NCBI GenBank assembly: GCA_013314775.1
Contig: JABUFB010000010.1
Location: forward strand, 310,001-374,000
Length of the DNA: 64,000 bases
Reading direction: 5' to 3'
From: Armatimonadota bacterium
GTDB taxonomy: Bacteria > Armatimonadota > Zipacnadia > Zipacnadales > JABUFB01
This document shows positions 3,981 through 33,101 of the stretch, one piece after another; positions within the stretch are counted from its first letter, which is position 1, and the number at the start of each line of letters is the position of its first letter. The notes under the pieces are model-generated. The model made no database searches, was not told the DNA's origin, and saw only the letters and a program-made list of their open reading frames with translations. A program made the translations under genes and the position numbers.

Positions 3981-5102
3981 TCAAAGCAGGCTTCCATACC
4001 GGCTGATCCGGTGGAATGTCATCCGGTTCGCGTCGTGGAAGTTGTGCGCGCCGTCGTACGCGCAGCGAACCATGTAGATGATGTCCTCCCCATCAAACTG
4101 CCAGTCCACGTACTGGAAGCCCGTCTTGCGGATGGACTCCTCCCACGGAATCGGGAGGTCATCTTCCAGCAACGTGGTCACATGCCGCCAGTTGCGCAGG
4201 TCCGCGGATGCGTTCAGGCACAGCACATTGCGCTGGGCGGGGTACTTCGGGTCCGTGTTGTTGTTACTAAGGGTGAGATACAGGCCGGTCACCGGGTCAC
4301 GGCGGATGGTGAACTTGGTCATGCCACCGGGAAAGTCGATGAAGCCGGTGGCGGGGTCGAAGTCGATGCGGCGTCCATCGTCGTGCACAGTCACGATGGC
4401 GGCCTTGTCCACTTCCGGGTCCGAGTGGAAACGCAGGATGTTCCAGATCTCGCCCCCAGGAGTCTCCACCACATTGCCCTCCAGCCAGCCCCGCACCGGA
4501 CCCTCGCGCCAGTCCTTGGGGATCCACGCGCGTTCGCACAGGAGCTTGTTGCTCATGATCCAGTTGCGGGCATCCAGCAGGTCGCAGTCTTCGGGGCAGG
4601 AGATGACACAGGAGAGGAATCCGTTGCCCCAGACGGCATCGCGGCAGTCTTCCACGGCGCGGTAGATGCGCCCACCGGTCTTGAGTATCGGGACCGGCGC
4701 GCAGTGGTAGTTGGGGTTGGTGCGGAAGGGCCCGCCGCGGAACAGCAGGCCGGTCTCGGCGCTCATGGGATGGGTCCAGCGCTCGCCGCCGGTGTCGCTG
4801 CGGCGAATCACCACCGACCCGTACTCCTGGCTGATCCCGAGAATGTAGATAGACCCTTCGTGCTCGAACAGGTTGCCCCAGAAGAGGCCCATGATGTGGT
4901 TGATCTCGGTCCAGGTTTCGCCATCGTCGCTGGAGCGGTAGACGCTGGTGAGCCCCCACTCGTTCTCGTGAGTGCGGGGCGAGCCGGGGCCGAAGTAGTC
5001 ATGGGTGGCGAGGATGTCGCCATTGTCGAGCCGGAGAATGCTGGGACTGCCGAGGTACGAACCGGTTGAGGCGTGCTGGAAGCGGATTTCGTTGAACTTC
5101 AT
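3981..5102 (-). CDS. Sialidase-like (BNR-repeat) protein, cytoplasmic
   Basis: The 373-residue product begins MKFNEIRF and is preceded by AAAAGGAACCCC, a good ribosome site; the longer upstream frame has no such signal. It shows the BNR/Asp-box pattern of sialidase-fold six-bladed propellers, for example SSDDGETWTEI near residue 55 and SDTGGERWTHPM near residue 100. Two Cys-rich stretches (SCVISCPEDC) lie mid-protein. No signal peptide is seen, so it should act in the cytoplasm. Related proteins are usually annotated as exo-alpha-sialidases, but the catalytic Arg triad cannot be assigned by eye, so the substrate is unknown. It lies 180 bases downstream of the heparinase-like gene on the same strand and may be read from the same transcript. 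A similar but secreted protein is encoded at 55104-56360. Confidence 0.8.
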   Translation of the reverse strand: MKFNEIRFQHASTGSYLGSPSILRLDNGDILATHDYFGPGSPRTHENEWGLTSVYRSSDDGETWTEINHIMGLFWGNLFEHEGSIYILGISQEYGSVVIRRSDTGGERWTHPMSAETGLLFRGGPFRTNPNYHCAPVPILKTGGRIYRAVEDCRDAVWGNGFLSCVISCPEDCDLLDARNWIMSNKLLCERAWIPKDWREGPVRGWLEGNVVETPGGEIWNILRFHSDPEVDKAAIVTVHDDGRRIDFDPATGFIDFPGGMTKFTIRRDPVTGLYLTLSNNNTDPKYPAQRNVLCLNASADLRNWRHVTTLLEDDLPIPWEESIRKTGFQYVDWQFDGEDIIYMVRCAYDGAHNFHDANRMTFHRISRYGSLL

Positions 5103-5120
5103 GGGGTTCCTTTTCGTGGG

Positions 5121-5183
5121 GGGCAGCAAGTCTCCCGTCAGGAGTCCAGGGGTTTCGGCCCCCTGGCTATAGGCGAGCTGCCC
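5121..5183 (-). promoter_or_regulatory. Nested hairpin in the gap before the sialidase-like gene
   Basis: An outer 7-bp stem (GGGCAGC at 5121-5127 with GCTGCCC at 5177-5183) encloses an inner 7-bp hairpin (CCAGGGG at 5146-5152, CCCCTGG at 5160-5166). It sits between the stop of the heparinase-like gene and the ribosome site of the sialidase-like gene. It may terminate or attenuate read-through, or stabilise the end of the upstream message. Confidence 0.45.
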
Positions 5184-5282
5184 CTCCGGGGCCTTGACGG
5201 CGACAACCAACACCAGTGGTACGCGAGAACAGACGACAGGCCGCCCGAGGCGGTCGGCCTACGCGAGTCCACGTCTTCTGAC

Positions 5283-8200
5283 TCACGGCAGCCGGAACGC
5301 CACCATCTCCCCGGCATCGGAGACAGCCACAACCTGCCCCTCGCCGCACAGCACGCGCATTGCGCGGCCGGGGACTTCGCCGTGCGCGGTGAGCCTGCCT
5401 TCGGCATTCAGCGCCACGATTCCTGCCGAACCCGCTGCGGCAACAATGTGCCTTCCATCCGCGCTCAGGGCGAGGTCTCCCGCGCCGTCCGGGAGCGCCG
5501 TGCGCCACTTCGTGGTGCCGTCGAGGTTGAGGGCGAACACGTTGGCGCTCTCGGCCGCCGCGAGGATCACCGGGGTCCCGTCAGCGGCTTTCGCCTTGCC
5601 GATGATCCGGGTCACGCGATCGCCCAAGTTCACGAGCCACAGTTGCGTCCCGTTGCCATCATAGCAGAGCAGGTCGCCGCCGTCGGTGCCCACGAGCACC
5701 TCGGGCAGTCCGTCGCCATCCACGTCCGCCGAAGAGACCGCGGTCATGTCCGGGCCCAGATTCCCGGCAGTGTATATGCGCTTGCCGTCATTGTCGATGA
5801 GGTTGATCCGGTAGTACTCATTGCCCGCCACGATTTCGGGCAGGCCGTCGCCGTCGAAGTCATCAGCGCAACTGACCGTGGCCGAATGGGCGTAGATGAT
5901 GTTCGACCACATGAGGGTGCCGTCGGCGCGGTAGGCCACGTACTGCCAGTTCTTGCAGCCGCAGACCATCTCGTCCTTGCCGTCGCCGTCCAGGTCAGCA
6001 GCGAGTATGGTCATGACATCCGGCGCGATTCCTCTGTACGGCGGCGGCGTCTGCTCCCAAAGCAGCTTGCCGTCGCTGGACAGCAGCGCAGCCCGGCTCC
6101 CGAGACCTCCGGCCATCACTTCGTCCTTCCCGTCGCCGTCCACGTCGCCGCAGGCCAGGGTGAGGAACCCGGCGCGCTGCTTCGATGCGAAGCTCCAGAT
6201 CGGCTCGCCGCTGGCGCGGAAGGCCTGGATCTCCCCCGCCTTGCTGCAGGCCAGCAGTTCATCGACGCCGTCCCCGTCGATGTCGCCGCTGGTGATGTCC
6301 GTGATCTCCGGTCTGGCGCCAGGCGCAGTTCCGCGGACCTCGATTTCGGCGATATAGACCGCGGAATCTTCACGCGCCGGAGTTGCCGTTAGCCGCAGAT
6401 AGCGGGCCTTCTGCCCGATGGGAACCGAGTAAATCGTGTTGACGTTGTTCCCCCAGCTTTCCGTGCCCGTCTCGGTGAAGGGTGTGGCGAGAGCGCGGAG
6501 GTCCTGCTGGAAGTTGTCGTCGCTCAGTTCCAGGGAGCGCGCCGCGATGTCCCAGCCCTCGTTCATGTGCCATTCGCGCAGGGAGACGGAAGAGATTTCG
6601 ACGACCTCGCCCATGTCCAGAGTGATCTTCGCTTCCTGCCCAGCCGGCCACATGGCCGAATAGATGGATGAGCTGTACATGCCGTCCACGAGGCGCTCCA
6701 CCGGGCTGTGACTCGCCCGGGGGGCCGGCTCCGAAGTGATGCTCGCAGGTCGCAGCATTTCCAGCGGTGCCTCGAAGCCCGCCTGTTTCCATGCCACCGT
6801 CAGTTTGGGGCAGGCGAGACCGTTGTCTGCCCCTGCAGTTTCCGGCGCGGGAAGCGCAGCGGCTTTGCGGATCAGGTCCGCCAGTTCGCTTCCTGCCGGG
6901 GCAGCTTCGAACCCCAGGCGGTGAGTGCCTTCCTCCAGCGTCAGGCGAAGCGTGCCGTCGGCAGTGACCTGGTGCGGCGTGCCGTCCAGATTAGCCACAG
7001 CATTCGGGGTCGCCCGCAGCGACACCTCGCAGGCGCCATCGGCCTGCAGGACCGCCAGGCCCTCCCCCGCGACCATTTCTACTGACACCGGGCCATCGGC
7101 GGTCAGGCTCATACCGGGCCCGGATACCCTCGTCGCGCCGAAAGCCGCCCAGCGGTCGGCTGCGATGACAAGCAGGTCGGCGTCGGTCTCGATCCCCAGT
7201 TCCGCGGCGGAGAGTCTGCCGACGACCACATCCGGGCCGCCGGGACCGTCAACGATGACTCCATCCGCGCCGGCTCTCCGCACCGAACGCTCCACCGGAT
7301 CGTCCTGCGGGAAAGAGTGCACCAGGTTCACAAAGCGGTACTCGCCGCCGGGTTCGAGTGTCAGCCCGACCTGTCGCGACAGCCGGCTCACCGGCATGCT
7401 CTCAACGGTCTTGAGGTTCTCCAGGCGTGCCGGGGCAGCATCTCCGGCGGCGATTACCAGCCGCATGGGCTTGTGATCAACGGTGAGCACCCCGTCGTGC
7501 AGTTGCGCATCTCCCCACGGCCGCCAGCAGGAGCGCAGTGTGAAATCCCCCGCTTCCTTTGCAGTCACCGTATCAAGCACCAGGAAGTATGCGCCCCTGC
7601 GCCAGAGGATCCTGCGCTGCCAGTCGGCGCCGGAGTAATCGTTGAGATATGTGCGCGTGCAGGCGTAATGGTCCAGATCGGCAACGAGCCCCAGCCCAGT
7701 GATTGCCGGGGTCTTGTCGGTCTGCCCGTTGCGCATGATAGCCACCGAACAGTGGTACTTGGGCGCGTTCTTGATATACTCGCCGTCCACCAGCAGCGGT
7801 GCGCCGCCGTCCGAGTACCGCACAATGGCGTTCGCGTCAAAGTGCATGTGGGTACCCCGGCCGAAACCATCCAGCAGCAGGTACTGGTCTTCCGGAGCCA
7901 GCCCGGCGCGAAAGGCCAGTTTATCGAAGCTGACTTCCCAGGGCAGATTGGGCTCAACCGGGTACTGAGGGCTGTGGTCGATGTAGTCGTAGCAGAGCTT
8001 CGGCAACCGGGAAAGACTGATCCCGACATGGCTCTCGGCCGGCCGGGGCTCGAAGCCTACATTATACGGCTGCCCCAGGGTGTAGGTGTGCCGGTCGCCC
8101 GCGAGTTCCGCGCCCCAGAGCAGCTCGGGATCCTTGTAGTACCACGCCGCGCGCTGGACAACCGGGCGAATACCCGAGGAGGACTTCTCGTCGGTGTGGT

Positions 8201-9551
8201 CGCCGAAAGCCGCCTGGTAGCCCCTGTTGTCCATGACCATCATCGCAACCCGCGCTGCTTCTCGCGCGTGGCCTTCGTCGAAGAAGGTGGTGTCGCCCTG
8301 GGCGAGGGAGTAGATCATCACATGCTCGATGGGCAGCCACTGGTATGCCGCGGCGTCCTCCAGGGGCTTGGGGCTGTGCTTCTGTCCGGCGAAGATGCCC
8401 TCGGCCACAGTCAGCCAGTCTTCCACTTGCGGGCGCTGATAGTGGGCCTTCAAATAGCGCCCCACGAAATAGATGCCCAGCGCCGGGAAGGTGTTGTGAT
8501 TATGGACGATGGTGGTATTCTCACGCCACTTGTCCACCGCTCCCGGGCGGTTGTAGCCCTGGTAGATAACGCACTCCAGGGCAAGGCGCACCAGTAGGTT
8601 CGTGAAGTCCAGGCGTTCCTGGTCGCTGAAGGCCCCACTCTCTTCCAGAAGGTCCCAGAGGATAGCCACCGGATGGGTCCAGGCGTCCCGGAAGTCCCCG
8701 TCATATCGGGCCATGCCCTCTTCATTGATGGTCTTGTCGGTCCGGTAGTACTCCAGCAGCGCGTGCATAAGGTCCCGGTAGATCTCCAGGGCGACCGGGT
8801 CTCCGGTGCGATGTGCCTTGTAACCCCAGCGGATCAGCACCGACACGCCGTTGCGTCCCTGGCCCGGGCTGAACATGCTCTTGCGGCCGGTGGCGATGGC
8901 GGAGGCCTTCTCCTGCGCGGAAGTGAGTTCACTTGCACCCTTCGGCTTCTCGTCCGACTCCAGTTCAAGCACCTGAAGCCTGCCGAGGGACAGGCCATTG
9001 CCCTGTGCCGCCTCCGTGACCAATTCCGCAAAGGCCTGAGCGGCCCGGGCAGTCCCCTCGGCCTTGCTCCCTCCCACCAGGATCGCGTTCTTCCCTCCGC
9101 CGAAGGGGTCGTGGATCGAGCGGATCACGTACCCGCTGGGCCCGGTGTACTGCTGGTCCAGGCAAACGAAGAAGTTGTGGTAGAGCCGGGCCACGATGCG
9201 GTTGTTGTCCAGATGGCCCACGAGTATCACATTCGCCGGCCCCTCATCCGGCCAGCGGCAGTTGGCCTCACTCACGAGCGGCAACTCCACCCCGGTGGCC
9301 TGCTTCACTGCATTCTGGATCGCCTGCGCTGCCTGCTTCCACGCCGCCTCATCCGCGTGACAGATGACCGCCTGCGCCTCACCGTCCCGCACCAGTTCGG
9401 TATCCAGGTCCAGCGGCATCAGCTCGTCGGCGCGGATTTCGAGTTCCGCCAGGAGGGCTTTCTCGGCTTCCAGCACTTCCTTCGGCGCAGCGCAGGCGAC
9501 GCCCGCAGCGAGCACCGCGAAAATCCAGATGGACACCGTAGGGATGGACAT
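5283..9551 (-). CDS. Secreted heparinase II/III-like lyase with F5/8C and FG-GAP propeller modules
   Basis: The product has 1422 residues. I place the start at 9551 (MSIPTVSIW), where GGAGG lies 9 bases upstream and a clean signal peptide ending near ACAAP follows. The first 650 residues resemble the alpha/alpha toroid plus beta-sandwich of heparinase II/III-type polysaccharide lyases, with the typical motif THMHFDANAIVRYSDGG. Around residues 980-1105 there is an F5/8 type C-like carbohydrate-binding module (LVDGMYSSSIYS, ITLDMGEVVEISSVSLREW). The last 320 residues carry repeated DxDGDGxxE segments (GDIDGDGVDE, GDVDGDGKDE, ADLDGDGKDE, DDFDGDGLPE, ADVDGDGLPE), which are calcium-binding FG-GAP/VCBS blades. 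It follows the lipoprotein gene at 9581-11332 by 29 bases, so the two are probably one operon. The lyase assignment is by fold; the polysaccharide is not known. Confidence 0.82.
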   Translation of the reverse strand: MSIPTVSIWIFAVLAAGVACAAPKEVLEAEKALLAELEIRADELMPLDLDTELVRDGEAQAVICHADEAAWKQAAQAIQNAVKQATGVELPLVSEANCRWPDEGPANVILVGHLDNNRIVARLYHNFFVCLDQQYTGPSGYVIRSIHDPFGGGKNAILVGGSKAEGTARAAQAFAELVTEAAQGNGLSLGRLQVLELESDEKPKGASELTSAQEKASAIATGRKSMFSPGQGRNGVSVLIRWGYKAHRTGDPVALEIYRDLMHALLEYYRTDKTINEEGMARYDGDFRDAWTHPVAILWDLLEESGAFSDQERLDFTNLLVRLALECVIYQGYNRPGAVDKWRENTTIVHNHNTFPALGIYFVGRYLKAHYQRPQVEDWLTVAEGIFAGQKHSPKPLEDAAAYQWLPIEHVMIYSLAQGDTTFFDEGHAREAARVAMMVMDNRGYQAAFGDHTDEKSSSGIRPVVQRAAWYYKDPELLWGAELAGDRHTYTLGQPYNVGFEPRPAESHVGISLSRLPKLCYDYIDHSPQYPVEPNLPWEVSFDKLAFRAGLAPEDQYLLLDGFGRGTHMHFDANAIVRYSDGGAPLLVDGEYIKNAPKYHCSVAIMRNGQTDKTPAITGLGLVADLDHYACTRTYLNDYSGADWQRRILWRRGAYFLVLDTVTAKEAGDFTLRSCWRPWGDAQLHDGVLTVDHKPMRLVIAAGDAAPARLENLKTVESMPVSRLSRQVGLTLEPGGEYRFVNLVHSFPQDDPVERSVRRAGADGVIVDGPGGPDVVVGRLSAAELGIETDADLLVIAADRWAAFGATRVSGPGMSLTADGPVSVEMVAGEGLAVLQADGACEVSLRATPNAVANLDGTPHQVTADGTLRLTLEEGTHRLGFEAAPAGSELADLIRKAAALPAPETAGADNGLACPKLTVAWKQAGFEAPLEMLRPASITSEPAPRASHSPVERLVDGMYSSSIYSAMWPAGQEAKITLDMGEVVEISSVSLREWHMNEGWDIAARSLELSDDNFQQDLRALATPFTETGTESWGNNVNTIYSVPIGQKARYLRLTATPAREDSAVYIAEIEVRGTAPGARPEITDITSGDIDGDGVDELLACSKAGEIQAFRASGEPIWSFASKQRAGFLTLACGDVDGDGKDEVMAGGLGSRAALLSSDGKLLWEQTPPPYRGIAPDVMTILAADLDGDGKDEMVCGCKNWQYVAYRADGTLMWSNIIYAHSATVSCADDFDGDGLPEIVAGNEYYRINLIDNDGKRIYTAGNLGPDMTAVSSADVDGDGLPEVLVGTDGGDLLCYDGNGTQLWLVNLGDRVTRIIGKAKAADGTPVILAAAESANVFALNLDGTTKWRTALPDGAGDLALSADGRHIVAAAGSAGIVALNAEGRLTAHGEVPGRAMRVLCGEGQVVAVSDAGEMVAFRLP

Positions 9552-9580
9552 CACTTGAGGCCTCCGTATGCGTTGCATCT

Positions 9581-11332
9581 CTAGTCAACCGCGTCCTTGA
9601 GCACGAACAAGCGAGTCTGCGCGTCGGCAGGGAGCGTTACCCTCCGTCCGGGCACGCCGTCGAAATCTTCCAGCACGATCTGCCTGGGGCCTTCCTGCGC
9701 GGCCCAGTCCTGGTCGTAGGTCAGCACGATGTGGTACGGCCCGGTCTTCACGCGCCGGACGATGGGCAGCGTCTCCTTGAACTGCTTCTGCGCGGGGACA
9801 TCAATCCTTACATCACCTGTGCGCAAGCAGTACTCGACGCACTTCGCCAAGGCAAGCCCCTCGATCATCGCCGCCACCGGTTCGGACGCACACCGCAGAT
9901 ACGGGTTCAGCGCTTCCCCGCTCATGCTGAACACAGGGCGGTCTTCGCGGATACCGTATTTCTCGGCGGGCTTGTCGCGCTCGATGCGCTGGAAACGCAC
10001 GGTCCCATCATCGGCCACGTCCAGCACATGGAGCACTTCGTAGCGCTCGAACCGGGCAGGCTCGTCACTTCCCTCGGGAGCCAGTTCGAAGGGGGTGCCG
10101 ACCATGAGGTCCGCGTCCTTCGCCGGCTTCCCCGGCCTGTGATGGTTCCCGGTGCCCGACCAGTTCCAGAGCACGAGACCGTCGCAGCCCGTGAAAAAGC
10201 ATGCGGCGGTCATTGCGCGGGTCTCCTCATTGGACAGCGGCTGATTCTGCCACCACCGCCACCCTCCCCCGCCGCCATGCAGGAGGGTCCAGTAGTAGGG
10301 CCGCACCGGTTTGCGTACCTCGCACGAGTTGACCAGACGCATGTTCAGATCGATGTTTGCGAGGGTATAGGCCACATTCTGACTGGACCAGTAGAAGCAG
10401 TAGACAGAGGGGTTCAAGATGTCCACTTCGTCGTAGATCGCTTTGCCGAAAGCGTTCCAGGCCCAGTCGGTTTCCGGGTCCACTTCCGCCCTCTCGATGC
10501 CGAACCAGCGCCGTCCGAAAGGCTGCCAGCCGTAGATGCTGATGTTCTTCCAGCCGGCTTCTCGCGCCGCCTGCACGGGAGCGATGTAAGTCAGGGCATA
10601 CCCATCGTAGTAGCGCTTTTCAAAGTCCACCCGCTCCTGTTCCGGCGCGTCGGTGGGGTACCAGTCTTGCTTGCGAAGAGCATCGAGGGACAGCAGCCCG
10701 TGCTCCATATCGATCATCAACTGGTCGTACCCGGGGTCCAGCTTGAAGACACCGGCCTTCACCAGTTCGCCCTTGACATCCATTGCAGGCAGCAGATCGT
10801 AACGGCCATCTTCGATGCCATGCTCGGGCAGCCACTTGTGCCAGTCCACGAAGCCTCCCCAGCGCAGCCAGCCGGTGCCCTCGGGCATATGGGTCCAGTC
10901 ATCGGGCTTGTGGTTATACGGATAGATGACCTGGAAGCCATGGGTCGCCGCATAGTCGTGCATCGCCCAGTTATGCCAGCCACCGTAGCTGAACTCGTTA
11001 GTGAAGTGCCGGAACCGGAAGGGTTGAATGCCGTCTGCCACGTATGGCGCGGTCCCGTCCGGCCAGTCGTCCGTCATGTTCGCAGGGTATGGTTTCCCAG
11101 GCCGGCCGACAACCGGCGGATCATTATCCAGGGGCACTCCGCGCAGCATGTCGGCGGTGATCGAGCTTTCTGCGGCTATCTCGACCTGCCCGGCACCGGC
11201 AGGCAACGTGATGATCGCGAACCCGGGCAGTTTGTCGGCGAGTGCTGAGAGTTCAGCGGCTGCCGGATCGGGCTGAGCCATGCAACCACTCACAGCGGCC
11301 AGTATCATGACAAGTGCGCAGAGCAGTCTCAT
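9581..11332 (-). CDS. Putative lipoprotein of unknown function, possible TIM-barrel glycosidase
   Basis: I do not recognise the family. The product is 583 residues from ATG 11332, which has GGGGGAG at a good distance. A much longer upstream frame is open but has no ribosome site. The N-terminus (MRLLCALVMI, then AAVSGC) fits a lipoprotein signal with lipobox VSGC, so it is probably membrane-anchored and exported. The body is rich in Trp and Tyr and reads like a (beta/alpha)8 enzyme: LMIDMEHGLLS near residue 200, NISIYGWQPFGRRWFG, ILNPSVYCFYW, RPYYWTLLHGG and DGLVLWNWSG follow in an order that could mark successive strand ends. A beta-sandwich-like tail of about 120 residues follows. It is the first gene of a minus-strand operon with the heparinase-like lyase and is divergent from the gene at 11503, so a role in glycan breakdown is inferred from context only. 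Confidence 0.7.
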   Translation of the reverse strand: MRLLCALVMILAAVSGCMAQPDPAAAELSALADKLPGFAIITLPAGAGQVEIAAESSITADMLRGVPLDNDPPVVGRPGKPYPANMTDDWPDGTAPYVADGIQPFRFRHFTNEFSYGGWHNWAMHDYAATHGFQVIYPYNHKPDDWTHMPEGTGWLRWGGFVDWHKWLPEHGIEDGRYDLLPAMDVKGELVKAGVFKLDPGYDQLMIDMEHGLLSLDALRKQDWYPTDAPEQERVDFEKRYYDGYALTYIAPVQAAREAGWKNISIYGWQPFGRRWFGIERAEVDPETDWAWNAFGKAIYDEVDILNPSVYCFYWSSQNVAYTLANIDLNMRLVNSCEVRKPVRPYYWTLLHGGGGGWRWWQNQPLSNEETRAMTAACFFTGCDGLVLWNWSGTGNHHRPGKPAKDADLMVGTPFELAPEGSDEPARFERYEVLHVLDVADDGTVRFQRIERDKPAEKYGIREDRPVFSMSGEALNPYLRCASEPVAAMIEGLALAKCVEYCLRTGDVRIDVPAQKQFKETLPIVRRVKTGPYHIVLTYDQDWAAQEGPRQIVLEDFDGVPGRRVTLPADAQTRLFVLKDAVD

Positions 11333-11502
11333 GGTCGATTCTCCCCCGGGAGTCTGGGATGTGAGCGCCCATTTCGCCCCGGCAACCCTCCAATCCTGCG
11401 CGGAAGGGGCAGGTGTGATGCGGCGCGAATATGGGGTAGGCTGGTAGAGCAGCGAACCATCTCGCATCGTGGCGACCTTTGCGCGGAGAGATCCCTTCGA
11501 CC
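11333..11502. promoter_or_regulatory. Divergent intergenic region of the first glycan locus
   Basis: These 170 bases separate the lipoprotein gene (minus) from the glycosidase-like gene (plus), so they must hold both promoters. I could not pick a convincing -35/-10 pair or an operator palindrome by eye. Confidence 0.4.
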
Positions 11503-14085
11503 ATGGAACACTGCCCGGCACTTAGGCGCAACATCACTCTCATTCCCGAGGTACTTGCGATTTTCTGCCTGCTCTGCTGCCTGAACACGGCCTGGGCGCA
11601 ACCCCTCGCGACCGTGTCGGATATCGCGACGCCGCAAGTCAGGCCGGAGGGTGCGCCGAAGCCTTCGGACGTCTGCTTCTCCACCCGCTGGCCCCGGGGA
11701 TTGAACTCGAAGGACCCGTACGACGGTCTCGCCGCTGCGCACCAGTTCCACGCCACCCGGCTGGACTGGCTCTACACTCAGGGGAAGGCCGAGTTCATCC
11801 GGCGGGCGAAAGAGCGCGGTTACGCGGTCAGCGCGGCGGTGAACAGCACGCTGCCGGATAGCCTCGGCAGCCGCGACTATACCATCGGACGGGCCAGGTA
11901 CCTGGACGGCAAGCCGATCATCGCCTCCTGGATGCGGGCCTGGGGCATGTATTGGGGCTGCTGCAACAACCCCGCGTACCGCAAGCTGTACCTGGACTTC
12001 GCCACTGCGGACGTGGACCTGGGAGCAGATTCTCTCCAGACTGACGGCGAGTTGGGCAACATCCACCTGCCCGACTGGGGCGGGTGTTTCTGCGAGCACT
12101 GCGTGGCTGGATTCCGCGAGTTTCTGCAGGAAAACACCACCCCCGAGCGTCGGGCGGAATTGGGCATTCCCGATCTGGCGAACTTCGACTATGCCGCGTA
12201 CCTGCGGGAGCGAGGCACGGAAAGCAACGTCCACTGGCGGAACTGGAAGGGCGACCCGCGGCTCGCCGAGCTGTTCGTGAAGTTCCAGGAAGAGAGCATG
12301 GTCCGCTTCTACACCGAGGTCTTCGCGGCCATCGACGCCCATGCCGGGCGGCACGTACCCCAATCCGGCAATCACGCCGGCCCGTACCGCCCGCACCACA
12401 GACTCTTCGACTACTTCATGGCCGAGACGTACCCGTACCGGGAAGGACTGCCCCGCCTGCTGTACTACGAACGCATCCTGCCCTCACGGGAAGCAGGCAA
12501 GCCCTACGTGTTCACCTTCGTGACCGATGACGTGTCCCGGACCCGGCGGTTCATTGCGCTTTCTTACGCATTGGGCGCCCACGTGATCGTGCCCTGGGAC
12601 GTGTATACGGGCTCCAATACGCCGCGCGTGTTCGCCACACCGGACCAGTATGCCGACCTGTACGGCTTCGTGCGCGCCAATGCCGAACTGCTGGATGGTT
12701 ACGAAGAGGCTGCCGTCTCTGGTCCGGGCTGGACGGATGACCGGTACGACTCCCGCCCTCCGGTTCGCGTGGACGGGCCGAGCGATGTCTACGCCACGGT
12801 GCGCGCCAGACCCGGAGATTCCAACGCTCCGGTTGCGGTGCATCTCGTGGACTACTCCGAGGACCCCGAGCCCTTCCGCATTGTTCTCGACCCCGCGCGG
12901 TTCTTCGGCGACCGTCCCCTGAAGCTGCGGCTCCTCACGCCTGCCGCCTATGACGCCGACGCCCACGCGCAGGCCGAGGCGAGCGGGGATTTCGCGGCCC
13001 TGGCGGAATCCGTGGACATTCCCGGCGGTCGCGCGACACAGATTGCGATTCCCGCTCTGAAGCCCTGGGGGATCTTGTTGGTTGAACCCGGTGACGGTGA
13101 TCCGGAAAAGTCGTGGGAGCCGGCGATCTGGGCCGAGCACGCAGATCGCTTCCGCGAGCAGATCCCCATTCACATCACCTCACCGGACAGCGATGCGACA
13201 CTCCGCTATACGTTGGACGGATCCGCGCCGGGGCCTGACTCCCCCGAGTACACTGGCCCCATTCAGCTGAACCAGACCACTACCGTAAGCGCCCGAGCAT
13301 ACACGACTCGCGGCCCAAGCGCCACGGTGCGAGCCACATTCACGCTGGACGAAAGCGCACCGAAACCCGCCGCACCGGACACTCCCGGTCTGGGTGCGCC
13401 GCTGTTGTCGTGGCTTTCCGCACAGCGTCTCCTGGAGACCCACGATGACGGCGACGAAGTGCGGGTCTGGCCCGCCGAAGCCGGCCCCGATGCCACGGTG
13501 CCTGCGCTGGACCTGTCCACGGGCGTCAAAGCCGGACCGCCGTTGCTGGACGTCGACGGCATCAACGGACGCGCGGCTCTGCGCTTCCGCGCTCAGGGCG
13601 ACCTGCTGTCGGCGCCCGGGGTGTTCGCCGACCTCGCGGTGCCCGGCGCGCCCACGGTCTTCGTGGTGATGCGCTCCGAAGACCCCGAGTTTGGCATTTG
13701 CGGCAACGCGCTCAACGGCTCCGGGGGAATCCCGCGCCTCTACATGACCCGGGGACGGATGCATTACGACACCTTGGACCGGTACGTGGGGGTGGCATTG
13801 AGCGACAATGAGCCCGGGCTGGTGGCATACATGCACGATGGAGTTTCCACGGCCGGCGTGCGGACCAACGGCATACCCACCGCAAGCCGCAACGACATCC
13901 CGGCGGTGGCGGAATTCGGCGGCGGGAATCTCGCGATGCCCTTCTGCTCCGGCAATCGCGAGCGAGCAGGATTGATCGCCGAAATCGTGGTCTTTGGCGG
14001 GCCCCTGCCCGAGGAGAGTATCCGGGGCGTTGAGGAGTACCTGCTCGCGAAATATGGCATCCCTGGCGCGCTCAAATGGCGATGA
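11503..14085 (+). CDS. Secreted glycosidase-like protein with chitobiase C-terminal-type and LamG-like domains
   Basis: The product is 860 residues from ATG 11503, with GGAGAG 12 bases upstream. An in-frame TTG at 11479 is an alternative. A signal peptide runs to about AWAQPL. Residues 60-430 look like a TIM-barrel glycosidase of the beta-galactosidase-like superfamily, with an internal Cys cluster (GGCFCEHC) and SLQTDGELGN near the expected active-site region. Around residues 565-625 is a chitobiase/hexosaminidase C-terminal-type module (ATLRYTLDGSAPGPDSPEY). The last 220 residues resemble a concanavalin/LamG-like domain (VFVVMRSEDPEFG ... EEYLLAKYG). It is 24 bases upstream of the next gene and co-oriented, so the two form an operon ending at the strong hairpin at 16974. 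Substrate unknown. Confidence 0.78.
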   Translation: MEHCPALRRNITLIPEVLAIFCLLCCLNTAWAQPLATVSDIATPQVRPEGAPKPSDVCFSTRWPRGLNSKDPYDGLAAAHQFHATRLDWLYTQGKAEFIRRAKERGYAVSAAVNSTLPDSLGSRDYTIGRARYLDGKPIIASWMRAWGMYWGCCNNPAYRKLYLDFATADVDLGADSLQTDGELGNIHLPDWGGCFCEHCVAGFREFLQENTTPERRAELGIPDLANFDYAAYLRERGTESNVHWRNWKGDPRLAELFVKFQEESMVRFYTEVFAAIDAHAGRHVPQSGNHAGPYRPHHRLFDYFMAETYPYREGLPRLLYYERILPSREAGKPYVFTFVTDDVSRTRRFIALSYALGAHVIVPWDVYTGSNTPRVFATPDQYADLYGFVRANAELLDGYEEAAVSGPGWTDDRYDSRPPVRVDGPSDVYATVRARPGDSNAPVAVHLVDYSEDPEPFRIVLDPARFFGDRPLKLRLLTPAAYDADAHAQAEASGDFAALAESVDIPGGRATQIAIPALKPWGILLVEPGDGDPEKSWEPAIWAEHADRFREQIPIHITSPDSDATLRYTLDGSAPGPDSPEYTGPIQLNQTTTVSARAYTTRGPSATVRATFTLDESAPKPAAPDTPGLGAPLLSWLSAQRLLETHDDGDEVRVWPAEAGPDATVPALDLSTGVKAGPPLLDVDGINGRAALRFRAQGDLLSAPGVFADLAVPGAPTVFVVMRSEDPEFGICGNALNGSGGIPRLYMTRGRMHYDTLDRYVGVALSDNEPGLVAYMHDGVSTAGVRTNGIPTASRNDIPAVAEFGGGNLAMPFCSGNRERAGLIAEIVVFGGPLPEESIRGVEEYLLAKYGIPGALKWR

Positions 14086-14109
14086 TTACCGTCGCGTGGA
14101 GGTCGTGAG

Positions 14110-16947
14110 ATGAGGATCTCCTGCCTGCTCCTTCTGTCCGCACTGCCGGCATTCTGCCAGGTGCGACCTGATGCGAACACCACTTTCCTGTGCACATTCG
14201 ACCGCGACCTGCGCGCCGACTACGCTCTCGGTGACTGGCGCGGCTCCGCTCCGCCCGGCGTTTCGCTGAGTCCCGGCAGATTCGGCTCCGCGGCCCGCAC
14301 CAGTGGGCAGGGCATCACATACAATGCCCACCAGAACCTGTCCCTTCCCGAAGGCAGCCTTGAAGTCTGGTTGCGACCGCTATGGATCAACGCCACGCCG
14401 CCCACGGCTACAGTGTTCGCCTTCACCACCGACGCCGGCGACTACCTGAATCTGAACGTCATCGCAGGAGGCCGTTTCGGAGTAGCCGTGCGCACAGGAG
14501 GACAGGAGGACTGGGTGTGGCGGAGGATTGATGTGGACGCCTCAAACTGGGACCCGGAAACCTGGAGACATGTTGCCGCCACCTGGAACGCCACCAGCCT
14601 GCGGCTCTACGTGGACGGTCAGCCAGTGGGGAATCCGGTGGACGACGTCCAGCCCTTCGAGGGCGAGGCGACGACATTCCGGGTCGGCGGCGGCGAGATG
14701 CTTCTGGATTGCCTGCGCCTCTCGAACTGCGTCCGCGGTCCTGAGGCCATCGCAGCAGCAGCGCTGTCTCAGCCCGGCCCGCCCGACCTGCTGTACCTGT
14801 CTTCCCTGCCGATGTCCGCGACCGGCGAAGTACGCGCCGATGGGCTGCCCGACCGCGCACACCTGATTCTGCCCCTGATGGTCGGCTCCCGTGTGCACGC
14901 GCGAGGTGTGGGCATGAACTCCCCCGCAAGCGCCGCCTTTGACGTCCCCGACGGCTTCACAATCCTGTCGGGGATTGCCGGTCCGGCGACTTTCGAGCAG
15001 TCAGGCGACGTGCTCCGCCTGTCCGTAACCGGAGACGGCCGCACGCTTTGGCAGTCCGACGCCACAGCAGCGACCGATCTGCGGGTGGATATCACCGGGG
15101 TGCACAGGCTTGAGCTTTCCGCGGAGTCGTCGGCCAACGCAAGCCACGCCGTCGTCTGGGCGGACATGATACTGCTGAAGCCCGGTGTCGATGCGCCGCC
15201 CAGTTTCAGCCGGGAGGCGCAGGCCAAAGACCTTGCCATCGCCCGTCTGAAGCTGAACAGCCACCGATTCACCTTCGACCTGCCCCCCGGGGATGAGCTG
15301 TACTACTTGTACGAGCATAGTCCACTGGACAGCGTGGACCCGGCGGTTGCGCCCGAATCAGCCAATCCCCACGAAATCCGGGCCTTCGCATGCCCGGGTG
15401 AGTACGAGCCGCTGGGGCTGATTGTCGCAGCCCGCCGCAGGCTGGAAGAGGTCCGCATCTCCGTGCAGCCACTGACCAGCGACGCGCACGTCATCCCGAC
15501 GTCGGAAGTCGACATCCGCTGGGCGCTGCGCGGCCCACAGCGTAAGGGCTACTGGCTCAAGCCCGAGGAAAGTGAAATCACTTCCCGATTTCTCCTGCCC
15601 TGCACCCCGTTCGATCTTGCCCCCGGCAGCTTCCGGGAGATCCTCTTCGACATCCACGTGCCCGAAGACACTCCACCGGGGGTGTACGTGTCAGAGATAT
15701 CCATCCGGCCCGGCAATGCACCAGAGAAGACCGTGGGCATCGCTCTGCGCGTCCTGCCGGTAAACCTCCCGCCGACGAGACAGCACAAGTTCGGGATGTA
15801 CTACCGCTGGAACCATGCACCCGAGGCTGAAGAGCGGTTGCGCCTGGAACTGCGGGACATGCGCCGCCACGGCATCAATACCATGGGTCCGGCTCTGGGC
15901 ATTGAGTGGCGGAAGGAGGGAGATCAGATTCGCGCGGACCTGGAACCCCTGCGTAGAGCCCTGACGATCCTGCGCGAGGAGGGCTTCTCAGGCCCAATCC
16001 CAATCCAAGACAACCTGGTCCAGCTTGCGCGGATGATTGGCTTCAGCAGCGTAGGTGGGCCGGCCAATACCGTTGTGCCCGGCCTTGAGGACGACGCGGG
16101 ATTGCTGGCGGCCGCGAAATCGGGCTTTGATGCCCTGAAGCTGCTTGCCGCCGACTTCCCGGAGTTCCAGCTTTCGGTCACCCACATGGACGAGGTCTTC
16201 GGGCGCGATAGACTACCGCTCTACATCCAGCTCGCAAAGATCGTGCGGAAGACCACCGACCTGCCCCTGTACGTAACCCTGAACACCCGCCCCGGCAGTG
16301 GCTGGGAGCAGATGATGGCCGAAGCCGATCCGTATATCGATATCCGCTGCCATCACGGGTACACCATCGACCTGTGGCTCAAGTCCGGGCACACCTTCGA
16401 GGAGTTCGGCGAGCTCGCGCGGCGCTCGGGCGACCAGCAGTGGATGTATTACAACATGCGCGGCGCGTACTTCACGCCCGAATGGGTCCGCGTGGTCAAC
16501 GGGTACTACATGTGGATGTCACCCGTCAGTCTACACGTTCCATGGATGTACTACAGTTTTGGCGGCGACCCCTTCGACGACACTGATTCCGAAAACTACG
16601 ACTTCGGATACTCCGTGCCATCGCCGCAGGACGGCAAGACGCCGGTGCCGACACTGCACATGAAGGCATTCCGCGAGGGCATTGACGACCTGCGTTACCT
16701 GGAGCTCCTTGAGAGCCTCATCGAGCAGGCTCGCATCCAGAAACCCCGAGCGGCGCGGGAGGCCCAGCAGTTCCTCGCCCGGCTTCGAAAGATGATGCCG
16801 GCGATCCCCGCTGATCTTGCCGAGGTCGAGGGCGAGAGCCCGGTGCTGATCTGGTTCGACCGCAACTACACGGGTGAAGACTACCAACACTTGAGATACG
16901 GTGTTGCCGACCACATCCTACGACTGCAGGCAGCGCTGGGCGACTGA
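14110..16947 (+). CDS. Secreted LamG-NPCBM-DUF4091-type glycosidase-like protein
   Basis: The product has 945 residues. The start ATG is preceded by GGAGG at 7 bases, and a signal peptide ends near PAFCQV. Residues 20-210 form a LamG/concanavalin-like module (GSLEVWLRPLWI, WRHVAATWNATSLRLYVDG). Residues 215-360 look like an NPCBM-type carbohydrate-binding domain (SRVHARGVGMNSPA). The remainder resembles DUF4091, related to GH123-type hexosaminidases: a beta-sandwich ending APEKTVGIALRVLP, a barrel with SVTHMDEVFGRDR, and the diagnostic C-terminal segment AFREGIDDLRYLELLESL. This points to an exported enzyme acting on amino-sugar-containing or other complex glycans, but the catalytic residues are not proved. 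It is the second gene of the plus-strand operon starting at 11503. Confidence 0.83.
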   Translation: MRISCLLLLSALPAFCQVRPDANTTFLCTFDRDLRADYALGDWRGSAPPGVSLSPGRFGSAARTSGQGITYNAHQNLSLPEGSLEVWLRPLWINATPPTATVFAFTTDAGDYLNLNVIAGGRFGVAVRTGGQEDWVWRRIDVDASNWDPETWRHVAATWNATSLRLYVDGQPVGNPVDDVQPFEGEATTFRVGGGEMLLDCLRLSNCVRGPEAIAAAALSQPGPPDLLYLSSLPMSATGEVRADGLPDRAHLILPLMVGSRVHARGVGMNSPASAAFDVPDGFTILSGIAGPATFEQSGDVLRLSVTGDGRTLWQSDATAATDLRVDITGVHRLELSAESSANASHAVVWADMILLKPGVDAPPSFSREAQAKDLAIARLKLNSHRFTFDLPPGDELYYLYEHSPLDSVDPAVAPESANPHEIRAFACPGEYEPLGLIVAARRRLEEVRISVQPLTSDAHVIPTSEVDIRWALRGPQRKGYWLKPEESEITSRFLLPCTPFDLAPGSFREILFDIHVPEDTPPGVYVSEISIRPGNAPEKTVGIALRVLPVNLPPTRQHKFGMYYRWNHAPEAEERLRLELRDMRRHGINTMGPALGIEWRKEGDQIRADLEPLRRALTILREEGFSGPIPIQDNLVQLARMIGFSSVGGPANTVVPGLEDDAGLLAAAKSGFDALKLLAADFPEFQLSVTHMDEVFGRDRLPLYIQLAKIVRKTTDLPLYVTLNTRPGSGWEQMMAEADPYIDIRCHHGYTIDLWLKSGHTFEEFGELARRSGDQQWMYYNMRGAYFTPEWVRVVNGYYMWMSPVSLHVPWMYYSFGGDPFDDTDSENYDFGYSVPSPQDGKTPVPTLHMKAFREGIDDLRYLELLESLIEQARIQKPRAAREAQQFLARLRKMMPAIPADLAEVEGESPVLIWFDRNYTGEDYQHLRYGVADHILRLQAALGD

Positions 16948-17078: not shown

Positions 17079-17135
17079 GCGCCCTGTACGCTTCCCTGAC
17101 CCGGCGGTTCCGCGCCTCGCCCCGGAGTGCCAGAC

Positions 17136-17885
17136 ATGACGCGCCTGTTCATCGACCGCGTGATCTCGGCAGGCGAAGTGGTTGCCTTGCCGGAGGATGC
17201 CGCGCACTACCTGCTGAGGGTCCTGCGCAGGCAGCCGGGTGACAGCTTCGTCATCGTCGCAGCCGATGGCAGCGAGCATGTCGCAACATTGGAGCCGAGT
17301 GAGGGCCCCGCGCGGGCAAGGGTGATCGAGAGCCTGGAACCCGTTCCTGCTCCGACGGTCAATCTCGTGTTGTATCCCGCGGTGCTCAAGGGCAAGCACT
17401 TCGACCTGGTAATCCAGAAGACTGTGGAACTGGGCGTGGCAGAAATCGTCCCGGTGATCACGCGCAGGACTGTCAGCAGGCCCGAAGGCGAGCGCGTTGA
17501 AGGCCGGCTGGCGAGGTGGAACAAGATCGCGCTGGAAGCCTGTCGCCAGTGCGGGCGCAACGAGCCCCCACCGGTCTGCGAGCCGCTTTCCTGGTGCAGT
17601 GCCCTGGCCGACTGGAGCCGACGCGGGATACCGGGGATCATCCCGTATGAGGCCCTGGCGCGCAACCCGGAGGCGAGAATCAAGCGGGGCCTCGCCGGGA
17701 TCGGATACGCCGACAGCATCGCCGCGTTCATCGGCCCTGAAGGCGGGTTCGCCCCATCTGAGATCGAGGAAGCACTGTCCGCGGGTCTCACTCCGGTGAG
17801 TCTCGGGCCTCGGATTCTGCGCGCCGAAACGGCGTCCATCGCCGTATGCGCAATCGTGATGAACGAAATGGAGTGTCCCCAATGA
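17136..17885 (+). CDS. rsmE: 16S rRNA (uracil(1498)-N(3))-methyltransferase RsmE
   Basis: The 249-residue product has the usual RsmE length and architecture: an N-terminal PUA-like domain (residues 1-70, HYLLRVLRRQPGD) and a C-terminal SPOUT methyltransferase domain. The knot motifs are clear: VIQKTVELGVAEIVPV, FIGPEGGFAPSEIEEA and LGPRILRAETA. The enzyme uses S-adenosylmethionine to methylate N3 of U1498 in 16S rRNA. I choose ATG 17136, which has GGAG 8 bases upstream, over the in-frame GTG at 17127 that overlaps that ribosome site. A good promoter lies at 17050-17078. Its stop overlaps the start of the next gene in an ATGA, so translation of the sugar-binding lipoprotein is probably coupled to it, an odd pairing. 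Confidence 0.95.
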   Translation: MTRLFIDRVISAGEVVALPEDAAHYLLRVLRRQPGDSFVIVAADGSEHVATLEPSEGPARARVIESLEPVPAPTVNLVLYPAVLKGKHFDLVIQKTVELGVAEIVPVITRRTVSRPEGERVEGRLARWNKIALEACRQCGRNEPPPVCEPLSWCSALADWSRRGIPGIIPYEALARNPEARIKRGLAGIGYADSIAAFIGPEGGFAPSEIEEALSAGLTPVSLGPRILRAETASIAVCAIVMNEMECPQ

Positions 17886-19243
17886 TACGCCCGTCACGCC
17901 TGCTTCTGTGCGCCATATCGCTGGCGACCCTGAACCTTCTCGCAGGATGCGTGGAGAAGGTCTCTGAGCCTGTGGGGCCACCCCCGGGCGGCGAGATCAT
18001 CAACAAGCCAACAGCCGGAGCCACCACGACGAGTGGCGGGATCGAGCTCGAGCTCTACACCTGGACCGAGACCGATGAACTTGAGGTCAACCGCGAACTG
18101 CTCAAGCAGTTCGAGGCCGATCACCCGGGCATCAAGGTGAACCTGGTCAACATCTCCGGCAGCCGCGAAGCCATGCAGAAGCTGGAGACGAAGATGGCCG
18201 CAAAGGACGGACCGGATGTCATGTCCCTGCATGGGGCGTACTATGTGGGTTTCGCGGATGCGGGCGTTCTGGCCGATCTGGAGGAGTTCGCCCGGGATGA
18301 CGCGGACTTCGGCCTGAGCGACTTCCACCCGCGCCTGGTGGACATGTGCCGCTACCAGGGCAAGCTCTTTTCCCTGCCCCGGTATACCAGCATCTACTCT
18401 CTCTTCTACAACAAGGCTCTGTTTGACGCTGAGGGCATTCCCCACCCCGGCAAGGGTTCCTCATGGACCTGGGACGACTACCTGAAGGCATGCAAGGCGC
18501 TCACCAAAGACACCAACGGCGACGGCAAACCCGACCAGTGGGGCTGCATGATTGACTTCTGGGGCGCGCGCCTGTACCCGTGGCTTTGGTCGAACGGAGC
18601 CGATCTCATGGACAAGGAGATCAAGCGCTGCATCATCGACGACCCCAATGCAGTGGAGGCGCTGCAGTTCCTGGTGGACCTGCGCCATAAGTACAAGGTC
18701 TGCCCGGCCAGCACCTCCACAGAGCGCAATGAGGGCCTCACCAGTTTCGCGCGGGGCAATGTGGGCATGTATATGTCCGGACCGTGGGACATCCAAACGT
18801 TGAACGAAGCGGAGAATCTGGACTGGGATGTGGCCCCGGTGCCTGAAAAGAAGACGCGCTCCACCATGCTCGGCACCGAGAATTACGCCATCTGGGCGGG
18901 TTCGCGTCACCCGAAGGAAGCTTGGGAGCTGTTCAAGTTCCTGCTCAGCGCGGAAAGCCAGACGGTGATGGCCGAGAGGCTGGACAAGATGCCCTCGCGG
19001 ATCTCGGTCCTCCAGGGCGCGTACGCCGGTGGGGATGCCGGCTATGACCGTTCGGTCTACGTGAAGGCCCTTGAGTATGCAAAGAACCCGCCGAACTTCC
19101 CGGAGTACAACCAGGTGGAGGGCATCCTGCAGGCGGAGCTTGATCGCATCTGGCTGGGCAGCGTGGCTCCGAAGGCGGGGCTGAAGACCGCCGCGGAGAA
19201 AGTGAACAAGAAGCTGGAGGAAATCAGATCCAGGCCTGAGTAG
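17882..19243 (+). CDS. ABC transporter solute-binding lipoprotein (family 1, sugar type)
   Basis: The product has 453 residues with a lipoprotein signal (LATLNLLAGC, lipobox LAGC). It shows the classic family-1 extracellular solute-binding pattern: LELYTWTETDE near the mature N-terminus, FEADHPGIKVNLV, KDGPDVMSLHG, LPRYTSIYSLFYNKALFD, WTWDDYLKACKALT and a late GNVGMYMSGPW. Such proteins bind mono- or oligosaccharides outside the membrane and deliver them to an ABC permease pair. No permease or ATPase of that type lies nearby, so it is an orphan and must work with a transporter encoded elsewhere. The start ATG overlaps the rsmE stop (ATGA). Confidence 0.92.
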   Translation: MIRPSRLLLCAISLATLNLLAGCVEKVSEPVGPPPGGEIINKPTAGATTTSGGIELELYTWTETDELEVNRELLKQFEADHPGIKVNLVNISGSREAMQKLETKMAAKDGPDVMSLHGAYYVGFADAGVLADLEEFARDDADFGLSDFHPRLVDMCRYQGKLFSLPRYTSIYSLFYNKALFDAEGIPHPGKGSSWTWDDYLKACKALTKDTNGDGKPDQWGCMIDFWGARLYPWLWSNGADLMDKEIKRCIIDDPNAVEALQFLVDLRHKYKVCPASTSTERNEGLTSFARGNVGMYMSGPWDIQTLNEAENLDWDVAPVPEKKTRSTMLGTENYAIWAGSRHPKEAWELFKFLLSAESQTVMAERLDKMPSRISVLQGAYAGGDAGYDRSVYVKALEYAKNPPNFPEYNQVEGILQAELDRIWLGSVAPKAGLKTAAEKVNKKLEEIRSRPE

Positions 19244-27277: not shown

Positions 27278-27465
27278 GAGTTTCACCTGAATTGTGACCG
27301 GCGGGCCGGCCTGAGATGCGCTTCATCAGGACAGTTGACCGTCCGGTGCCCGGATTCCTCCGCGATCTGGAGATGGTGAGCGCACGGTGTGGGAGGGACT
27401 GGCCTGTCGTGGAGGGAACATATATAGCGATCAGCCGGGTATCCAGGAGCCGTGGGAAGAGCTCG

Positions 27466-28401: not shown

Positions 28402-29105
28402 GTTCCAGAGAGCCGGCGGTGGTGGCTCGCGGCCTGCGCAAGGATTACCCGCTGGGCGACGTGACGGTCCAGGCGCTGCGAGGCGTTGATCTCGAACTGC
28501 CTGCCGGCAAGTTCGTGGTCATGCTGGGCCCCAGCGGCTGCGGTAAAACGACGCTCCTCAATCTCATCGGCGGACTTGACAAGCCTACAGCGGGAGAGCT
28601 GTCCGCCTTCGGCAGGCGGCTGTCCGAACTCAATGAGGCGCGCCTGACGGAGTACCGACGGGAGGACGTGGGTTTCGTCTTCCAAATGTTCAACCTCGTC
28701 CCAACCCTCACCGCATTGGAGAATGTTCTCCTCATCGAGCAACTTGTGGGTTTCGAGGGGCGTTCCGCGTCGGTGCTGGAGTCCGTTGGGCTGTCCGAGT
28801 TCGCCGACCACCTCCCTTCCCAATTGAGCGGTGGCCAGCAGCAACGCGTGGCAATCGCCCGAGCTCTGGTGAAGCAGCCTCGCCTGCTGCTGGCTGACGA
28901 GCCTACCGGTGCGCTGGATGTCCAGACCGGTCGCGAGGTGCTGTCGGTCCTGTGGCACGAGACGCGGTCGCGCGACATGACCCTCATCATGGTTACCCAC
29001 AATCCTGTGTTCGCACACATCGGTGATCTGGTCGTGACCATGCGGGACGGCATCGTGGTGGAGGTGGCCGAGGGTGAGGCCCGGGACCCCGTCACCGTTG
29101 CCTGA
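28398..29105 (+). CDS. ABC transporter ATP-binding protein (LolD/MacB type)
   Basis: The 235-residue product has Walker A GPSGCGKTT, a Q-loop (VFQMFNLVPTLT), signature LSGGQQQRVAIARAL, Walker B LLLADEPTGALD and the H-loop in MVTHNP. TGALD is typical of LolD/MacB/FtsE ATPases that drive FtsX-type permeases. Its start overlaps the adaptor gene (ATGA), and its 3' end overlaps the longest reading of the permease gene. Confidence 0.95.
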   Translation: MSSREPAVVARGLRKDYPLGDVTVQALRGVDLELPAGKFVVMLGPSGCGKTTLLNLIGGLDKPTAGELSAFGRRLSELNEARLTEYRREDVGFVFQMFNLVPTLTALENVLLIEQLVGFEGRSASVLESVGLSEFADHLPSQLSGGQQQRVAIARALVKQPRLLLADEPTGALDVQTGREVLSVLWHETRSRDMTLIMVTHNPVFAHIGDLVVTMRDGIVVEVAEGEARDPVTVA

Positions 29106-31548: not shown

Positions 31549-31649
31549 CGGGGGCTCGCACATGATTTGAAGCGCGGGTCGCCCGCCGGCCGTTGCCTCT
31601 CGCGCGAACCCCATATGACCCTTTGCAGCTGCCTGATTTGGAGGCCTCA

Positions 31650-33050: not shown

Positions 33051-33101
33051 TCCGAACCATAATACTGAACCCATCGCCAATCTGTGAGGATCACGGCAAT
33101 C

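What the first reader, a model, noticed from the sequence alone, without database searches (positions are those of the whole stretch)
3981..16947. A divergent five-gene glycan locus with mostly unassigned enzymes
Two operons diverge from a 170-base gap. The minus side has an unrecognised lipoprotein, a lyase with F5/8C and FG-GAP modules and a sialidase-like protein. The plus side has a barrel with a chitobiase C-terminal-type module and a LamG-NPCBM-DUF4091 protein. Amino-sugar-type modules (DUF4091/GH123-like, chitobiase-like) beside a heparinase II/III-like lyase suggest breakdown of a glycosaminoglycan-like or host/algal polymer. There is no SusC/D or TonB pair, so it would be a non-Bacteroidota type of polysaccharide locus.
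Basis: partly seen in the sequence, partly recalled or inferred. Interest (0 to 1): 0.6.

Follow-up and report, generated by a model that had tools for sequence, protein, structure and literature searches.

The report
Bacterial glycan locus with hyaluronidase-fold enzyme
Five neighbouring genes in an uncultured Armatimonadota bacterium look like a kit for cutting an amino-sugar/uronic-acid polymer, and the one nobody could name is predicted to be a distant bacterial cousin of the animal and venom hyaluronidases, with their catalytic Asp-x-Glu pair intact; nothing has been tested at the bench.

Summary
The five genes, their strands and the 170-base divergent gap are real. The locus is partly conserved. 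B, C and D keep the same layout in the only same-genus genome, where E has been deleted, leaving about 30 bp of its 3' end. B and E are neighbours in a second genus of the same family. No other pairing of the five was seen in about 100 relatives.

The main new result concerns C, the 'unrecognised lipoprotein'. It belongs to a bacterial family with no Pfam or PDB sequence match (Armatimonadota, Planctomycetota, Lentisphaerae, Kiritimatiellota, Poribacteria). Its predicted barrel is closest to GH56 hyaluronidases. A profile comparison with bacterial GH56 proteins scores 50, against 22 or less for controls, and aligns the GH56 catalytic Asp-x-Glu with an invariant Asp-x-Glu of C.

B is a remote heparinase II/III-superfamily relative; E is GH123-like with its Asp-Glu motif; D's barrel is related to alpha-agarase; A is a sialidase-fold propeller without the sialidase FRIP arginine.

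Best reading: secreted breakdown of a HexNAc-uronate polymer. The genome holds 31 heparinase II/III-like and at least 13 GH123-like genes, so the neighbourhood of B and E alone proves little. Substrate and activity are inferred.

The parts
3981..5102 (-). Gene A: Asp-box (BNR) propeller of the sialidase superfamily fold; no obvious signal peptide; no FRIP arginine
   Evidence: sub-threshold BNR_2/BNR_3; 11-member alignment, 62-69% identity; weak PDB profile hits to GH74/GH93/GH33
5283..9578 (-). Gene B: 1431-aa secreted protein; N-terminal heparinase II/III-superfamily-like lyase region (about residues 50-800), F5/8C-like domain (954-1069), FG-GAP/PQQ propeller (about 1090-1430)
   Evidence: (profile-profile with controls; orthologues flanked by DUF4962+Hepar_II_III_C lyases)
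8496..8504 (-). B: invariant His359-Asn360-His361 in the predicted helical toroid
   Evidence: invariant columns; catalytic role inferred
7830..7850 (-). B: invariant HxHxDxN (577-583), aligned with the Hepar_II_III_C region of DUF4962-type lyases
   Evidence: alignment
9581..11332 (-). Gene C: 583-aa predicted lipoprotein with a GH56-like (beta/alpha) barrel (about residues 105-400) and a C-terminal extension
   Evidence: lipobox VSGC read directly from the sequence
10703..10711 (-). C: invariant Asp208-x-Glu210 at the C-terminal end of strand beta4, aligned with the GH56 catalytic DxE
   Evidence: DSSP strands; profile alignment; 20 of 20 members
11333..11502 (.). 170-bp divergent intergenic region between C and D; no sigma-70-like promoter found by consensus scan
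11503..14085 (+). Gene D: secreted barrel related to alpha-agarase, then CHB_HEX_C/Fn3-associated module and a C-terminal domain read as LamG-like
   Evidence: (9m0b, E 9.2e-18 over residues 142-431)
14110..16947 (+). Gene E: secreted LamG + NPCBM + GH123-like/DUF4091 protein
16189..16194 (+). E: invariant Asp694-Glu695 aligned with the 'MDE' of GH123_cat proteins
17127..17885 (+). RsmE 16S rRNA methyltransferase; flank of the locus, not part of it
   Evidence: gene order in G001
17846..19243 (+). Carbohydrate-type ABC solute-binding protein; possible uptake partner only, conserved next to rsmE in G001

Best explanation
A lineage-specific set of secreted enzymes that takes apart a polysaccharide containing N-acetylhexosamine and uronic acid (glycosaminoglycan-like). 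C, a lipoprotein on the cell surface or in the periplasm, is a remote bacterial relative of GH56 hyaluronidases and would cut internal beta-hexosaminide bonds by substrate-assisted retaining catalysis, Glu210 as acid/base and Asp208 positioning the 2-acetamido group. B would cleave hexosamine-uronate bonds by beta-elimination and hold the chain with its F5/8C and propeller modules. E would remove beta-linked HexNAc from released chains with its Asp-Glu pair. D (alpha-agarase-like barrel) would cut a further linkage. A, apparently without a signal peptide, would work on imported fragments. Shown by computation: the gene layout, the fold and motif of C, the motif and homology of E, the superfamily of B, the homology of D. 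Inferred: all activities, the substrate, the order of steps, and that the five act together.
For: C: AlphaFold2 model pLDDT 88.9, pTM 0.90. Foldseek's best PDB hits are GH56 hyaluronidases. For the whole model VIA-align gives GH56 Z 15.7 (279 of 319 residues), tied with GH164 at 16.1. For the barrel alone the first five rows are all GH56, Z 15.4-14.3, next row 12.3 (on a model of only moderate confidence). Profile-profile match to PF01630-positive planctomycete proteins: score 50.4, probability 85%, E 6e-6, against at most 21.2 in 30 column shuffles, 15.0 reversed and 21.6 for four other families; DxE aligns with DxE; PSVY-like, RPY and GxVLWxW-like motifs also correspond. E: match to GH123_cat proteins, probability 99.9, E 4e-32, 'MDE' aligned. 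B: match to DUF4962+Hepar_II_III lyases scores 42.7 against shuffles at most 24.6, colinear over 470 columns; such lyases flank B orthologues in family f6. Linkage: B-C-D order conserved in G001 with a 3' remnant of E; B next to E in G002; GH123-like genes near C homologues in G055 and G059; heparinase-type lyases within 10 kb of C homologues in L135 and L139. The window also has an SGSH-type sulfatase (31593-33050) and the genome one GH88/GH105 gene.
Against: C does not match PF01630 at any reported level. The genome has 31 Hepar_II_III_C and at least 13 GH123_cat matches, so B and E lying close together is not very improbable by chance. In more distant relatives the five genes occur apart. 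D's nearest solved relative acts on agar, not on a glycosaminoglycan. GH56-like and GH123-like folds may have other substrates. There is no expression or activity evidence.
Confidence: 0.45

Rival explanations
1. No functional unit: five glycan-related genes that happen to lie together in a genome saturated with such genes, each acting on a different polymer.
For: 31 heparinase II/III and at least 13 GH123 matches in this genome; homologues of A, C, D and E mostly unlinked in about 100 relatives; E deleted in the sister species.
Against: C-B are 2 bp apart here and C-B and C-D stay neighbours in both species of the genus; E was ancestral at the same place; B-E adjacency in a second genus; three of the five point independently to HexNAc/uronate chemistry.
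Confidence: 0.3
2. A locus for red-algal or other galactan (agar/carrageenan-like) breakdown, with D as an alpha-agarase-type enzyme and B's propeller related to lambda-carrageenase.
For: D profile hits an alpha-agarase (9m0b) at E 9e-18; B's propeller matches the Pfam lambda-carrageenase propeller.
Against: The propeller match is shared with generic FG-GAP/PQQ repeats; heparinase II/III-type lyases, GH56-like and GH123-like folds do not suit galactans; D-type barrels are common in the phylum (51 of 101 genomes have a match to D, some only to its accessory module).
Confidence: 0.12
3. C is a barrel hydrolase of another kind (for example GH164- or GH42-like, double-displacement with two Glu) whose resemblance to GH56 is a shared barrel only.
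For: GH164 ties GH56 on the full model, Z 16.1 against 15.7.
Against: No conserved Glu at the end of beta7, where a clan GH-A-type nucleophile would sit; barrel-only search ranks five GH56 entries first; the GH56 profile match exceeds all controls.
Confidence: 0.13

Closest known systems
GH56 hyaluronidases (animal and venom enzymes; bacterial PF01630 proteins of Planctomycetota)
   Same: Barrel fold, DxE at the end of beta4, Tyr/Trp-rich motifs at the ends of beta5-beta8, overall motif order
   Different: No PF01630 match; about 14% identity; extra N-terminal and C-terminal parts; lipoprotein signal; activity unknown
Heparinase II/III superfamily lyases (DUF4962 + Hepar_II_III_C)
   Same: Colinear profile match over 470 columns including the HxHxDxN region
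   Different: B is below Pfam detection and carries F5/8C and propeller domains
GH123 and the DUF4091 beta-N-acetylgalactosaminidases (PMC11087588)
   Same: N-terminal beta-sandwich, barrel and DUF4091 match; Asp-Glu motif
   Different: Below the Pfam cut-off; added LamG and NPCBM modules; specificity unknown
Alpha-agarase (PDB 9m0b)
   Same: Barrel homology over about 290 residues of D
   Different: Different accessory modules; catalytic residues not mapped
Bacteroidota polysaccharide utilisation loci
   Same: Clustered secreted glycan-active enzymes
   Different: No SusC/SusD or TonB component found; a possible ABC binding protein lies beyond rsmE

Membership tests
GH56 (gene C) | GH56-type barrel fold | tested here: met
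   Whole model Z 15.7 over 279 of 319 residues (tied with GH164); barrel model has GH56 in the first five rows, Z 15.4-14.3, next 12.3
GH56 (gene C) | Catalytic Asp-x-Glu at the end of beta4 | tested here: met
   Invariant D208/E210 in 20 of 20 members, aligned with DxE of bacterial GH56
GH56 (gene C) | Match to the family HMM PF01630 at its cut-off | tested here: not met
   No PF01630 match in any of 20 members up to E 10; no genome of 101 relatives over the cut-off. Hence filed as a remote relative, not a member
GH56 (gene C) | Hydrolysis of hyaluronan or chondroitin | not testable with these tools
   needs purified protein
Heparinase II/III superfamily (gene B) | PF07940 match | tested here: not met
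   B is absent from the PF07940 list of its own genome
Heparinase II/III superfamily (gene B) | Profile-level homology with matching His/Asn motif region | tested here: met
   score 42.7 against 20 shuffles at most 24.6 and 17.0 reversed
Heparinase II/III superfamily (gene B) | Two-domain fold: (alpha/alpha) toroid plus beta-sandwich | not tested
   No structure was predicted for B, because relatives allowed in the folding tool were lacking
GH123 / DUF4091 (gene E) | PF13320 at its cut-off | tested here: not met
   18.5 bits against 23.1
GH123 / DUF4091 (gene E) | Asp-Glu catalytic motif in the barrel | tested here: met
   D694-E695 invariant in the alignment and aligned with 'MDE' of PF13320-positive proteins, E 4e-32
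Alpha-agarase family (gene D) | Sequence homology of the catalytic barrel | tested here: met
   9m0b, E 9.2e-18, residues 142-431
Alpha-agarase family (gene D) | Conserved catalytic residues | not tested
   No description of the 9m0b active site was found in the library
Sialidase GH33 (gene A) | N-terminal FRIP arginine | tested here: not met
   All 11 members read GSPS/GSPT there; the FRIP-type segment of the GH33-like protein in L142 (YRIP) lies just before the region that aligns with A
Sialidase GH33 (gene A) | Asp-box propeller | tested here: met
   Two Asp-boxes conserved; sub-threshold BNR matches
Bacteroidota PUL | SusC/SusD pair | tested here: not met
   None among 29 Pfam-scanned window ORFs

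The most novel reading that the evidence does not exclude
C founds a new bacterial glycoside hydrolase family at the root of, or sister to, the GH56 hyaluronidases, spread across Armatimonadota and Planctomycetota/Lentisphaerae-type bacteria, which hydrolyses a HexNAc-uronate polymer by the hyaluronidase mechanism next to a heparinase-type lyase.
Probability: 0.4. Interest if true: 0.65.

Novelty: new variant of a known kind. Interest (0 to 1): 0.5.

Why it matters
Hyaluronan-type polymers are broken by hydrolases of the GH56 kind mostly known from animals and venoms (PMC12254123), while bacteria are mostly credited with lyases. A deep bacterial family with the same fold and catalytic pair would give a new enzyme class to test, bear on where animal hyaluronidases came from, and put a name on a protein invisible to the family models searched here. 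It also points to a polymer that uncultured sediment bacteria may live on.

Tried and rejected
Pfam, NCBIfam and PDB sequence searches of C: nothing. PF01630 in 101 relatives: no match over cut-off. Refolding the barrel of C alone lowered confidence to pLDDT 74.9, so the full model is the main evidence. B against the F5/8C-type neighbouring lyases (A8): no signal; only the DUF4962-type lyases matched. C's profile against D and E: no signal, so the barrels are not simply paralogues. D as a GH56 relative: no. A as a true sialidase: FRIP arginine missing. Conserved promoter in the 170-bp gap: none by consensus. Paper searches found no description of this family.
Full report
WHAT IS THERE. The window lies in a 6.12-Mb, 98% complete genome. 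Its near relatives in the named collection carry the titles Armatimonadetes and Candidatus Zipacnadia. The five genes are A 3981-5102 (-), B 5283-9578 (-), C 9581-11332 (-), D 11503-14085 (+) and E 14110-16947 (+). C and B are 2 bp apart; the C and D start codons are 170 bp apart. Upstream of A is a PAS/histidine-kinase-like ORF (83-3412, read from its sequence); downstream of E come rsmE and a carbohydrate-type solute-binding lipoprotein. From the sequence itself, C has a lipobox (VSGC), B, D and E have secretion signals, and A has no obvious one.

HOW CONSERVED IS IT. In the only same-genus genome (G001) the C/D divergent arrangement sits on one contig and C-B on another, all at 88-91% identity; D is followed directly by rsmE and the binding protein. 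Aligning the D-rsmE gap shows that G001 still holds the last ~30 bases of E before rsmE, so E was there and was deleted, unless the G001 assembly is wrong at that point. The A side of G001 is cut by a contig end. In G002 (same family) a B orthologue is followed directly by an E orthologue. In about 100 further relatives homologues of A, B, C, D and E are found, but no two lie together in the regions inspected.

GENE C. C has no Pfam, NCBIfam or PDB sequence match. A scan of named genomes gave 21 loci from Armatimonadota/Zipacnadia, Planctomycetota (one Brocadiia), Lentisphaerae/Victivallales, Kiritimatiellota and Poribacteria; it is single-copy in the seven genomes searched. The 20-sequence AlphaFold2 model is confident (pLDDT 88.9, pTM 0.90). 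Foldseek ranks GH56 hyaluronidases first. VIA-align on the whole model ties GH164 (Z 16.1) and GH56 (15.7). The barrel alone, though modelled less well, puts five GH56 entries first at Z 15.4-14.3, the next row at 12.3. True bacterial GH56 proteins (PF01630 over cut-off) were found in 6 of 392 Planctomycetota genomes and aligned. Profile-profile comparison of C's barrel with them gives score 50.4, probability 85%, E 6e-6. Thirty column shuffles reach at most 21.2, the reversed profile 15.0, and four other families at most 21.6. With a relaxed alignment threshold, 'LMIDMEH' of C lies on 'AILDYEG' of GH56, DxE on DxE. D208 and E210 are invariant in all 20 members and follow strand beta4. Conserved motifs at beta6 (VDIxNPSVY against VDFVxPRxY), beta7 (KPxRPYYW against KPVYPxHS) and beta8 (GxDGxVLWNWS against GAxGVIxWHxV) correspond. 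There is no conserved Glu at the end of beta7, where a clan GH-A nucleophile would be expected. I conclude that C is a remote relative of GH56, outside the family as Pfam defines it, probably with the same substrate-assisted mechanism (mechanism of GH56: PMC12254123).

GENE B. Pfam sees only FG-GAP repeats and a weak F5/8C domain; PF07940 misses it. Its N-terminal 800 residues match DUF4962+Hepar_II_III lyases colinearly over 470 columns, score 42.7 against shuffles at most 24.6, including the invariant HxHxDxN. Those very lyases are neighbours of B orthologues in family f6. A lyase role is likely but its fold was not modelled.

GENES D, E, A. D's barrel is homologous to an alpha-agarase (9m0b, E 9e-18), followed by a CHB_HEX_C/Fn3-type module. 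E matches GH123 structures by profile (E 9e-11) and PF13320-positive proteins at E 4e-32 with the Asp-Glu motif aligned; DUF4091 enzymes with that motif are beta-N-acetylgalactosaminidases (PMC11087588). A is a conserved Asp-box propeller (62-69% identity across the order) without the FRIP arginine of sialidases.

WHAT IT PROBABLY DOES. Three of five proteins point to HexNAc/uronate chemistry by independent routes. Homologues of C elsewhere also have GH123-like neighbours (G055, G059) or heparinase-type lyases within 10 kb (L135, L139). The best reading is breakdown of a glycosaminoglycan-like polymer: C cuts internally, B by elimination, E trims, D cuts another linkage, A works on imported pieces. 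Against over-reading: this genome carries 31 Hepar_II_III_C and at least 13 GH123_cat matches, so the presence of a lyase and a GH123-like gene close together may well arise somewhere by chance. The weight therefore rests on C and on the conserved B-C-D-E arrangement within the genus.

NOVELTY. The locus type is known in kind. The new element is C: a bacterial family, invisible to the libraries searched, with GH56-like fold and catalytic pair. I found no description of it in the paper library, which is not proof that none exists.

Noticed in passing
whole genome G000: The genome has 31 matches to Hepar_II_III_C and at least 13 strong matches to GH123_cat, with only one GH88/GH105 match, an unusually lyase- and GH123-rich repertoire shared by its relatives.
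   Followed up: partly
L169-L176 (Planctomycetota): Genuine bacterial GH56 (PF01630) proteins occur in 6 of 392 Planctomycetota genomes, three of them in tandem in one genome.
   Followed up: partly
L104-L107 (family f6): B orthologues sit with two other heparinase II/III-type lyases and a HlyD/ABC transporter operon.
   Followed up: no
L109-L115: E homologues in other relatives head a conserved operon: CBM9-like protein, an unassigned 430-aa protein, a Big_7/copper-amine-oxidase-N protein and an Orn/Arg-type decarboxylase.
   Followed up: no
27316-36146: HlyD, ABC ATPase and FtsX/MacB-type permease genes, followed by a sulfatase with an SGSH C-terminal domain and a GH38 alpha-mannosidase.
   Followed up: no
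46861-50898 and 53275-55059: Long ORFs of 1345 and 594 aa without any Pfam match; both overlap long ORFs on the other strand, so their reality is uncertain.
   Followed up: no
17127-17885: rsmE lies between the glycan genes and a sugar-type solute-binding protein whose ORF overlaps it; the order is conserved in G001.
   Followed up: no
L138 and L142: C homologues in two Zipacnadia relatives share neighbours: an FAD-dependent oxidoreductase just upstream, a GDSL esterase and a BNR sialidase-like protein downstream.
   Followed up: partly
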